64,000 bases of DNA from Kribbella jiaozuonensis (GTDB lineage Bacteria > Actinomycetota > Actinomycetes > Propionibacteriales > Kribbellaceae), in NCBI RefSeq assembly GCF_005233875.1, contig NZ_SZPZ01000002.1:682001-746000 (forward strand). The letters are read 5' to 3'. The notes under the pieces were generated by a model. That model searched no databases, was not told the origin of the DNA, and was given only the letters and a program-made list of their open reading frames with translations. Of this stretch, positions 201 to 28,267 are shown one piece after another. The first letter of the stretch is position 1, and every line of letters begins with the position of its first letter. A program made the position numbers and the translations under genes.

Positions 201-218
201 GCTGCTGCTCCCAGGAAG

Positions 219-334
219 TCCGCACTTGCCGAGCGGGGTATCCGCACGGCCTGGTCTTCACCCGGGGCACCCCACCGCGGAGGAGGGTTGCCGGCCAGCG
301 AGCCGGGGCTTGTCGCTGACACTCATGACCTGCC
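219..334 (-). promoter_or_regulatory. SAM-IV-type S-adenosylmethionine riboswitch
   Basis: Read on the minus strand, the leader has the conserved SAM-I/IV core in order: GGTCATGAGTG, the CAGCGACAAGCCCCGGCT segment, GCTGGCCGGCAACCCTCC, a CCGCGGTGGGGTGCC arm and GGGTGAAGACCAGG closing P1. The downstream part ends in GGCAAGTGCGGA, as in actinobacterial SAM-IV RNAs, which add a 3' pseudoknot instead of the SAM-I P4. A TACCGT -10 box (339-344, minus strand) places the RNA start near 332. The riboswitch ends about 7 nt before the Shine-Dalgarno of the PLP enzyme gene, which fits translational control. Recognition is by consensus; no covariance model was run. Confidence 0.88.
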
Positions 335-25651: not shown

Positions 25652-25975
25652 ATGAACGATTTCCAGGAACAGGCGAAGAACTGGCTCCGGAATGTCGTCA
25701 AGCAGAACCCGGACAAGATCAAAGCCGGCGTCGAGAAGGCCGGCGACCTGATCGACAAGCAGACCGGCGGGAAGTACGCGGAGAAGGTCGACTCGGTCCA
25801 GCAGAAGGTCGGCACGTTCGTCGACAAGCAGACCACCGAAGAGCCGGGCCAGGCAGCCCAGGCAGATCAGACACCCGCGGACACGACCTCGGAGTCCACC
25901 ACCGCGGGTACGGCGGAGCCGGACCGGCCCGCCGACCGTTCGACCAGCTCGCCCGTGGACGGCCCCGCGAACTGA
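25652..25975 (+). CDS. Antitoxin-like protein of the MT0933 family
   Basis: A 107-residue protein whose first ~60 residues match the MT0933-type antitoxin (AGDLIDKQTGGKYAEKVDSV). The C-terminal half is Thr/Asp/Ser/Pro-rich and probably disordered. Shine-Dalgarno CGGAGGG precedes ATG. No toxin gene lies beside it, so 'antitoxin' is only a family name here. The 150-bp gap before it holds no feature I can name. Confidence 0.75.
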   Translation: MNDFQEQAKNWLRNVVKQNPDKIKAGVEKAGDLIDKQTGGKYAEKVDSVQQKVGTFVDKQTTEEPGQAAQADQTPADTTSESTTAGTAEPDRPADRSTSSPVDGPAN

Positions 25976-26121: not shown

Positions 26122-26150
26122 TTGACCGCGTGATGGGCCGCGCTTAGCCT
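26122..26150 (+). promoter_or_regulatory. Promoter of the rny leader
   Basis: TTGACC (26122-26127) and TAGCCT (26145-26150) are 17 bp apart, a good housekeeping-type promoter. Transcription should begin near 26157. Confidence 0.75.
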
Positions 26151-26156
26151 CGGGAT

Positions 26157-26605
26157 CAAGAAGGGATGAATCCACCGCAACGGTGGCGGATATAACGATC
26201 GGCGAGTCGGGTGAAACAGCCGACTGACCGGCAAAAAGACGCAACCACGCTCGACTGAGCTGAAGGAAGGACGACGGCGCCATGCGCCGTCGATAGACGG
26301 CACCGCACGCAAAACCCGGACGGTAACCATCCGGTCAGGGCGCGAGCGGCGTCACCGCGATCTCCGCGTTGTCGGCGGCGACTCACGGTGAGCAAGAGGC
26401 AAGCAACGCTGGAAAGCCGCACCGCGCGGCATCCACGGAGTCGTCGCAACGGCAGACACCGGTACCGCCATACCCAGGTGGCACCGGCACTGCCGTACCC
26501 CGATAGCCGCCGGAACCCCGGTGGCGCCTTCAGTCGTACCAGTGGCGAGTCCCTTCGACAGACGGCCACAGTCCCGCGTGGACTCGAAGGAGAGGGGAGA
26601 AGCCG
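26157..26605 (+). ncRNA. Long structured 5' leader of rny (about 450 nt)
   Basis: Between the promoter and the rny ATG lie about 450 nt with no credible gene. Hairpins are visible: CCACCG-CAA-CGGTGG (about 26170-26184), GTCGG...CCGAC (about 26204-26222), the 9-bp perfect stem CGACGGCGC-CAT-GCGCCGTCG (26272-26292), CCGGA...TCCGG (about 26316-26335), and a longer TCACCG...CGGTGA pairing (about 26353-26391). It does not match RNase P RNA, tmRNA or a riboswitch class I could recall. A leader of this length before an RNase gene suggests post-transcriptional, possibly autogenous, control. Confidence 0.55.
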
Positions 26606-28267
26606 ATGACCGCTACGTCCATTGGCCTGACCCTGATCGGTTTGCTGATCGCCGGATTGCTGGCCTGGATCGGCCTGACCCTCTCCCGCCGGAAAGCCGC
26701 CGACAACTCGACCGCCCAACTCGAGGCCGCGCAGCTGGCCGCCGGCGCGAAGTCCGCCGCCGAGCTGGTACGCCGGCAGGCCGAGGAAGAGGCCGCCGTC
26801 CTGCGGACGCGGGCCGAGGCGGCCGAGCAGCGCAGCGAGGAGATCCGCCGCAGCGCCGAGGACCGTGCCTCCGAAGTACGGCGGGATGCCGAGCAGCGGG
26901 CGTCCGACGTACGGCGGGAAGCCGAGGCGGAGGCGCAGTCGATCCGGGACGACCTGCGCGAGCAGCGACTCGAGATGGAGCGCCGCGACCACCGGCTGAC
27001 CGAACGCGAGGAGCGGGCCGACGAGCAGCACCGCGCGATGGAGCAACGCCAACTCGAGCTGACCGCGCAGCTGGCCGAGCTCGATCAGCGCAAGCAAGAG
27101 ATCAAGGACCTCGAGGACGAGCGCCGCCGGATCCTCGAAGGCGTCGCGAACCTGACCACCGAGCAGGCCAAGGCCGAGCTGGTCGCGTCGATCGAGGAAG
27201 AGGCCAAGCGGCACGCGCACACGATCGTCCGCGACATCGAGCGGCAGGCCCAGGACGAGGGCGAGATCAAGGCCCGCAAGATCATCACCGGCGCGGTGCA
27301 GCGGTTGGCGTCCGAGCAGACCAGCGAGTCGGTCGTGTCCGTCGTACACCTGCCGAGTGACGACATGAAGGGCCGGATCATCGGGCGCGAGGGCCGCAAC
27401 ATCCGGTCGTTCGAGCAGACCACCGGCGTGAACCTGATCATCGACGACACCCCTGAAGCGGTGCTGTTGTCCTGCTTCGATCCGGTACGGAGGGAGACCG
27501 CGCGGCTGACCCTGGACTCGCTCGTGCTCGACGGCCGGATCCACCCCAGCCGGATCGAGGAGATCTACGAGCGCAGCAAGGGCGAGGTTGCCGAGCTGTG
27601 CGAGCGGGCGGCCGAGGACGCGATGGCCGATGTCGGGATCACGGACCTCCACCCGGAGCTCGTTCGCACGATGGGGCTGCTCCGCTACCGGACGTCGTAC
27701 GGGCAGAACGTGCTCAAGCACCTGATCGAGTCGGCGCATATCGCGGGGATGATGGCGGCCGAGCTCGGGCTGGATCCCAAGCTGTGCAAGCGCGGCGCGT
27801 TCCTGCACGACATCGGCAAGGCGCTCACGCACGAGTCCGAGGGCAGTCACGCAATCGTCGGGGCCGAGCTGGCCCGCAAGTACGGCGAGAACGACGACGT
27901 CGTGCACTGCATCGAGGCGCACCACAACGAGGTCGAGGTACGGACCGTCGAGGCTGTGCTGACGCAGGCCGCGGATGCGGTGAGTGGCGGGCGGCCCGGT
28001 GCGCGGCGCGAATCGTTGGAGGCGTACGTCCAGCGGCTCGAACGCCTCGAAGAGATCGCGATGCACCACGAGGGCGTCGAGAAGGTGTTCGCGATGCAGG
28101 CCGGCCGGGAGATCCGGGTGATGGTGCTACCGGACGCGGTCGACGACATCGCGGCGCAGGTGATGGCGCGCGATATCGCGAAGCAGGTCGAGGAGGAGCT
28201 GACGTACCCGGGCCAGATCCGCGTGACCGTCGTACGCGAGTCCAGGGCTACTGAGGTGGCGAAGTAA
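26606..28267 (+). CDS. rny: Ribonuclease Y
   Basis: A 553-residue membrane-anchored endoribonuclease that starts mRNA decay. One N-terminal membrane helix (about 3-25) is followed by a long Arg/Glu/Ala coiled coil (about 30-190). A KH RNA-binding domain contains GRIIGREGRNIRSFE (about residues 253-267). The HD domain carries the catalytic metal pair in FLHDIGKAL near residue 400. GGAGAGGGGAGAAG precedes the ATG. In actinobacteria rny usually follows recX; here five genes or more separate them and miaB, the usual downstream partner, is absent. Confidence 0.96.
   Translation: MTATSIGLTLIGLLIAGLLAWIGLTLSRRKAADNSTAQLEAAQLAAGAKSAAELVRRQAEEEAAVLRTRAEAAEQRSEEIRRSAEDRASEVRRDAEQRASDVRREAEAEAQSIRDDLREQRLEMERRDHRLTEREERADEQHRAMEQRQLELTAQLAELDQRKQEIKDLEDERRRILEGVANLTTEQAKAELVASIEEEAKRHAHTIVRDIERQAQDEGEIKARKIITGAVQRLASEQTSESVVSVVHLPSDDMKGRIIGREGRNIRSFEQTTGVNLIIDDTPEAVLLSCFDPVRRETARLTLDSLVLDGRIHPSRIEEIYERSKGEVAELCERAAEDAMADVGITDLHPELVRTMGLLRYRTSYGQNVLKHLIESAHIAGMMAAELGLDPKLCKRGAFLHDIGKALTHESEGSHAIVGAELARKYGENDDVVHCIEAHHNEVEVRTVEAVLTQAADAVSGGRPGARRESLEAYVQRLERLEEIAMHHEGVEKVFAMQAGREIRVMVLPDAVDDIAAQVMARDIAKQVEEELTYPGQIRVTVVRESRATEVAK

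What the first reader, a model, noticed from the sequence alone, without database searches (positions are those of the whole stretch)
26157..26605. A leader of about 450 nt with multiple hairpins before rny
A good promoter (TTGACC-17-TAGCCT) lies 449 nt before the rny start and no convincing gene lies between. Several stable stems are visible, one with nine perfect pairs. E. coli rne is autoregulated through a long 5' leader; an analogous sensor for RNase Y would be new. I could not match it to a known riboswitch.
Basis: partly seen in the sequence, partly recalled or inferred. Interest (0 to 1): 0.65.

Follow-up and report, generated by a model that had tools for sequence, protein, structure and literature searches.

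The report
Conserved RNA leader controlling RNase Y
The mRNA of the RNA-degrading enzyme RNase Y in this soil bacterium (a Kribbella) starts with a long folded leader, and related leaders sit in front of the same gene, and only that gene, in many other actinobacteria, so it is probably a built-in control element, most likely one by which the enzyme limits its own production.

Summary
The promoter TTGACC-17-TAGCCT (26122-26150) is conserved upstream of rny in 38 of 38 Kribbella genomes, and a similar one stands there in 14 of 31 other genomes of the order. The leader folds better than all 100 shuffles (z -4.5) and has covarying hairpins in close relatives. It matches no Rfam family. Its 5' end (strand alpha, hairpin P2, then AUA) recurs in Streptosporangiaceae, Jiangella and a family that is probably Frankia. 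A covariance model made from those groups gave 41 matches in 247 genomes: 40 lie just upstream of rny, the other is a chance hit inside glmS.

Strand beta, about 55 nt before the start codon, can pair either with alpha at the far 5' end or with the Shine-Dalgarno strand gamma, but not both. Across 16 lineages alpha:beta pairing exceeds shuffles (Fisher p 4e-8), but in this window alone it does not (8 bp, p 0.31). I read it as an rny-specific switch: alpha:beta frees the ribosome site, beta:gamma masks it. The switch is inferred; RNase Y sensing is untested. RNase Y autoregulation is known in B. subtilis; this RNA family appears undescribed.

The parts
26122..26150 (+). promoter TTGACC-N17-TAGCCT
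   Evidence: conserved upstream of rny in 38/38 genus genomes; a similar TTGACC-N17-TANNCT in 14 of 31 other genomes of the order
26151..26201 (+). conserved 5' domain of the leader
   Evidence: model R1, 66.9 bits, E 2e-18 (a training sequence); at the rny position in nearly all genus genomes
26160..26167 (+). strand alpha GAAGGGAU, able to pair with beta
   Evidence: AAGGG at positions 10-11 after the -10 box in the Kribbella leaders that have it; in other lineages alpha is complementary to beta
26172..26186 (+). hairpin P2, CCACCG-CAA-CGGUGG
   Evidence: 98-99% of cells paired within two family alignments; CCACC/GGUGG here, CCGCG/CGCGG in other families
26190..26196 (+). AUAUAAC just 3' of P2; class consensus AUA(A/G)C; proposed RNase Y contact or cleavage site
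   Evidence: AUA invariant in the 19-sequence alignment over four families; role inferred
26200..26230 (+). hairpin P3
   Evidence: MFE; pairs vary as AU/GC/GU and UA/CG/UG in 15 relatives
26247..26266 (+). conserved ACGCUC-GACU-GAGCUGAAGG stem-loop
   Evidence: pattern ACGCTC-N3-5-GAGCT in 32 of 38 genus leaders, 0 in shuffles
   Evidence: MFE; covaries (GC/GU/AU, CG/UA) in relatives
26549..26556 (+). strand beta GUCCCUUC
   Evidence: CCCUUC 53-59 nt before the start codon in 37 of 38 genus leaders while total length varies from about 260 to 520 nt
26570..26584 (+). inner hairpin AGUCC/GGACU between beta and the Shine-Dalgarno strand
   Evidence: direct reading; conserved in the alignment
26587..26599 (+). 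strand gamma, Shine-Dalgarno region AAGGAGAGGGGAG, paired with beta in the MFE
   Evidence: UCCCUUC:GAGGGGA in the fold of 26540-26608; Shine-Dalgarno predicted paired in nearly all leaders
26606..28267 (+). rny, RNase Y, 553 aa
   Evidence: Pfam RNase_Y_N, KH_1, HD

Best explanation
It is the 5' leader of the rny mRNA and belongs to a cis-acting RNA family found before rny in Actinomycetes. A promoter-proximal domain (strand alpha, hairpin P2, single-stranded AUA) can pair over hundreds of nucleotides with strand beta just before the ribosome site; beta can instead pair with the Shine-Dalgarno strand gamma. Alpha:beta leaves the ribosome site free (translation on); P2 plus beta:gamma masks it (off). 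The most likely input is RNase Y itself, bound to or cutting at P2-AUA, which separates alpha from beta and lowers RNase Y synthesis. Shown computationally: promoter, conservation, rny-specificity, hairpins, complementarity. Inferred: the two-state switch and its direction. Untested: the role of RNase Y.
For: Promoter 38/38. z -4.49. Covarying hairpins. Model R2, trained without Kribbella: 41 matches in 247 class genomes, one per genome, 40 of them 0.2-1.2 kb upstream of the aligned part of rny on the same strand; the exception lies inside glmS. Alpha and beta keep fixed distances from the two ends while total length doubles. Alpha:beta above dinucleotide shuffles, Fisher p 4e-8 over 16 lineages; strongest in f17, Propionibacteriaceae (f2), Jiangella. 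The pairing persists with different sequences: GAGGUUUUACGG with CCGUAGAGCCUC, GGUGGAA with UUCCACC, AAGGGAUC with GAUCCCUU. In 41 Streptosporangiaceae-type leaders 84% of long-range cells pair against 24-59% when slid, and RNAalifold finds this helix unprompted. Shine-Dalgarno predicted paired in nearly all leaders. RNase Y prefers single-stranded AU-rich sites next to structure, and autoregulates in B. subtilis (PMC10303841).
Against: In the window itself alpha:beta is 8 bp including one G-U and is not significant alone (p 0.31); the MFE shows beta:gamma, not alpha:beta. Control windows inside the same leaders sometimes pair with the 3' region as well as alpha does. Two-sided compensatory changes within families are few; much of the covariation is between families and was partly found by looking for complementarity. 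Blocking beta raised predicted Shine-Dalgarno accessibility in 6 leaders (the window only 0.41 to 0.53) but not in the two Propionibacteriaceae leaders tested. No expression data; nothing links RNase Y to P2 directly.
Confidence: 0.5

Rival explanations
1. A riboswitch: the 5' domain and the closing helix form or gate an aptamer for a small molecule, which stabilises alpha:beta and turns on rny.
For: Layout of a closing helix whose 3' strand doubles as an anti-Shine-Dalgarno strand; short conserved single-stranded core AUA(A/G)C.
Against: Found upstream of one gene only, rny (40 of 41 model matches); most of the interior is not conserved even within the genus; no Rfam riboswitch match.
Confidence: 0.15
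2. A stability leader: the long-range 5'-3' duplex hides the 5' end from 5'-end-dependent decay (RppH, RNase J), and internal RNase Y cuts open it; translation is not the control point, as in the B. subtilis rny leader.
For: Alpha lies close to the 5' end, 10-11 nt after the -10 box; the B. subtilis rny 5' UTR is cut by RNase Y and then trimmed by RNase J1 (PMC10303841).
Against: Does not explain why beta also pairs with the Shine-Dalgarno strand in lineage after lineage.
Confidence: 0.2
3. A thermosensor, or target of a protein other than RNase Y (ribosomal protein, RNase III) or of an sRNA.
For: Shine-Dalgarno in a GC-rich hairpin; the long duplex in some lineages could attract RNase III.
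Against: No specific evidence; the duplexes are interrupted and short in Kribbella.
Confidence: 0.1
4. A long but functionally idle leader; conservation reflects promoter and translation signals only, and the pairing is GC-rich noise.
For: Weak alpha:beta statistics in the window; high background complementarity in GC-rich leaders.
Against: Conserved 5' domain downstream of the promoter across several families; structure z -4.49; covarying hairpins.
Confidence: 0.05

Closest known systems
E. coli rne 5' UTR feedback element (rne5; Diwa 2000, Schuck 2009, cited in PMC2864571 and PMC3997798)
   Same: Long structured leader of the main mRNA-decay endonuclease; a stem-loop acts as the sensor of the enzyme
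   Different: Different enzyme, no sequence or Rfam match, and here a long-range strand competes with Shine-Dalgarno masking; enzyme binding not shown
Bacillus subtilis rny autoregulation (PMC10303841)
   Same: Same gene family, feedback through the 5' UTR; the Shine-Dalgarno can lie in a hairpin
   Different: 164-nt leader, strongest cuts in its AU-rich 5' 50 nt, multiple cuts plus RNase J1 trimming and cuts in the ORF; the long-range helix and P2-AUA element are not described there
Actino-pnp RNA (RF01688, PMC2864571)
   Same: Actinobacterial leader motif of a ribonuclease gene (pnp, by its name)
   Different: Different gene and RNA; not matched by Rfam search here
Translation-controlling riboswitches (general)
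   Same: Closing helix strand doubles as anti-Shine-Dalgarno
   Different: No conserved aptamer-like interior and a single downstream gene

Membership tests
rne 5' UTR element (rne5) | Matches the Rfam model | tested here: not met
   no match in cmscan against all 4227 Rfam families
rne 5' UTR element (rne5) | Lies upstream of rne | tested here: not met
   downstream gene is RNase Y
rne 5' UTR element (rne5) | Nuclease binds a leader stem-loop and feeds back on its own mRNA | not testable with these tools
   needs binding and reporter assays
B. subtilis rny leader | Upstream of rny and long | tested here: met
   about 450 nt before rny
B. subtilis rny leader | AU-rich 5' region | tested here: not met
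   leader is GC-rich; AUAUAAC at 26190 is its only clearly AU-rich stretch near the 5' end
B. subtilis rny leader | Leader cleaved by RNase Y | not testable with these tools
   needs 5'-end mapping with and without RNase Y
Riboswitch | Mutually exclusive expression platform | tested here: inconclusive
   beta can pair with alpha or gamma; combined p 4e-8 over 16 lineages but p 0.31 in the window
Riboswitch | Conserved aptamer associated with several related genes | tested here: not met
   only rny: 40 of 41 matches
Riboswitch | Binds a ligand | not testable with these tools
   needs in-line probing or binding assays

The most novel reading that the evidence does not exclude
A new RNA family of Actinomycetes in which RNase Y, by binding or cutting the P2-AUA element near the 5' end, breaks a long-range helix so that its 3' strand falls onto the Shine-Dalgarno: enzyme-triggered refolding that shuts off translation of the enzyme, with no small-molecule ligand.
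Probability: 0.3. Interest if true: 0.78.

Novelty: new variant of a known kind. Interest (0 to 1): 0.62.

Why it matters
RNase Y control outside Firmicutes appears little studied, and several actinobacterial groups that carry rny (Kribbella, Jiangella, Streptosporangiaceae and others) have this leader. A single-gene RNA family conserved across several families gives a directly testable hypothesis for how the enzyme's level is set, and a case where a nuclease may act on a structural switch rather than simply destroying its mRNA.

Tried and rejected
Leader peptide: reading frames not conserved. Known RNA family: none in Rfam at gathering score, nor credible at lax E-values, for window and relatives (the best, BSnc140 at E 2 and radC at E 0.24, are far below threshold). 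Plain duplex energy between 5' and 3' regions was too noisy in GC-rich RNA; replaced by a helix score with shuffles. Defining beta from Shine-Dalgarno pairing alone gave clear signal in f2, f4, f12, f17 and f9, weaker in f1 and f23, none in f21 and f20, where the minimum-energy partner was not the presumed beta. RNAalifold on an automatic 64-sequence 5' alignment gave no structure because P2 was misregistered; realigned on trimmed representatives. Extra weak R1 matches in Kribbella genomes (E>0.005) mostly cover only the P2 hairpin and are treated as chance. No prior description of the RNA was found in the papers searched; subscription journals are not covered.

Full report
WHAT IS THERE. The window belongs to a Kribbella genome; named Kribbella genomes carry the closest rny genes. 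The rny ORF (26606-28267) has RNase_Y_N, KH and HD domains. Upstream lie TTGACC (26122) and TAGCCT (26145) with a 17-nt spacer, giving a leader of about 450 nt. The leader folds at -204.4 kcal/mol, 4.5 standard deviations below dinucleotide shuffles, none of 100 as stable. No Rfam family matches it or its relatives. A 73-aa ORF overlapping the rny start is not conserved.

CONSERVATION IN THE GENUS. All 38 Kribbella genomes sampled have the same promoter upstream of rny. The sequence from promoter to start codon is 289 to 548 nt long, yet AAGGG sits 10-11 nt after the -10 box in nearly all leaders and CCCUUC sits 53-59 nt before the start codon in 37 of 38. In 15 close relatives RNAalifold recovers internal hairpins with covariation, including the nine-pair hairpin (GC/GU/AU at one pair, CG/UA at another) and P3. 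Other conserved pieces are an ACGCUC-loop-GAGCU hairpin (32 of 38) and CGUACC (38 of 38).

CONSERVATION OUTSIDE THE GENUS. In the order, 14 of 31 non-Kribbella rny loci fetched have a TTGACC-N17-TANNCT promoter at this place; the listed genomes of family f3 mostly lack rny. In the class, rny was found in 125 of 395 genomes. Leaders from Jiangella, Streptosporangiaceae and relatives, and a family that is probably Frankia (not confirmed by name) share the 5' domain: a purine-rich strand, (A)CUCC, a hairpin, and AUA(A/G)C. AUA is invariant in a 19-sequence alignment over four families. A covariance model built without Kribbella (R2) gave 41 matches in 247 class genomes, one per genome. Forty lie 210-1175 nt upstream of the aligned part of rny on the same strand; the remaining one, the second-weakest by E-value, lies inside a glmS-like gene. 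R2 did not find the Kribbella leader, whose P2 is shifted by one position. A Kribbella model (R1) has its best match at the rny position in nearly every genus genome. The element is thus specific to rny.

THE THREE STRANDS. Beta (UCCCUUC in the window, 26550-26556) pairs with the Shine-Dalgarno strand GAGGGGA in the predicted fold, and folding the last 95 nt of other leaders pairs the Shine-Dalgarno in nearly all. Beta is also complementary to alpha at the 5' end. The complementarity is kept with different sequences: AAGGGAUC with GAUCCCUU (f4), GAGGUUUUACGG with CCGUAGAGCCUC (Propionibacteriaceae, f2), GGUGGAA with UUCCACC (Jiangella relatives, f23). In Streptosporangiaceae the complementarity runs through the P2 sequence: 84% of cells pair against 24-59% for slid registers, mostly G-C/G-U and C-G/U-G changes with one two-sided change; RNAalifold found this helix without being told. 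A search of 5' strand against 3' region, scored against dinucleotide shuffles, gave combined p 4e-8 over 16 lineages. It is not significant for the window alone (p 0.31), and in GC-rich leaders other segments sometimes pair as well with the 3' region, so the claim rests on the set, not on this sequence. Lineages were chosen as representatives after the pattern had been noticed, so the combined p is somewhat optimistic.

HOW IT PROBABLY WORKS. Alpha and beta are made before gamma, so alpha:beta can form first and leave the ribosome site open. If alpha is removed or P2 is held closed, beta masks the Shine-Dalgarno. P2 followed by a conserved AUA is the kind of site described for RNase Y (single-stranded AU-rich sequence flanked by structure, PMC10303841). 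RNase Y acting there would shut down its own synthesis. Presence at a single gene fits an autogenous circuit better than a metabolite riboswitch. The direction of the switch and the role of RNase Y are inference.

PRIOR ART. E. coli rne is autoregulated through a leader stem-loop (cited in PMC3997798 and PMC2864571). B. subtilis RNase Y autoregulates by cutting its 164-nt 5' UTR and early ORF (PMC10303841). Actino-pnp (RF01688) is another actinobacterial leader motif. Text searches of four RNA-discovery papers for rny or RNase Y found nothing. The function class is known; the RNA family appears new.

Noticed in passing
window 217-330 (-): SAM-IV riboswitch, 114.9 bits, the only Rfam gathering-level match in the window.
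   Followed up: no
window 25652-25975 (+): Small gene for an MT0933-like antitoxin family protein (PF14013) directly upstream of the rny promoter; no toxin partner was looked for.
   Followed up: no
window 26162-26173: The 5' strand in many Kribbella leaders reads GGGAUCACUCC, resembling from memory the 3' end of 16S rRNA (GGAUCACCUCC); possible anti-Shine-Dalgarno mimicry, untested.
   Followed up: no
L163 33-161: Sub-threshold radC RNA match (25.5 bits, gathering 40) well upstream of a probable Frankia rny.
   Followed up: no
L252 (G024:C12:13133-13171): Second, weak R1 match (25.5 bits, E 1e-4) away from rny in one Kribbella genome, stronger than that genome's rny match; region fetched but not examined.
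   Followed up: partly
   Followed up: no
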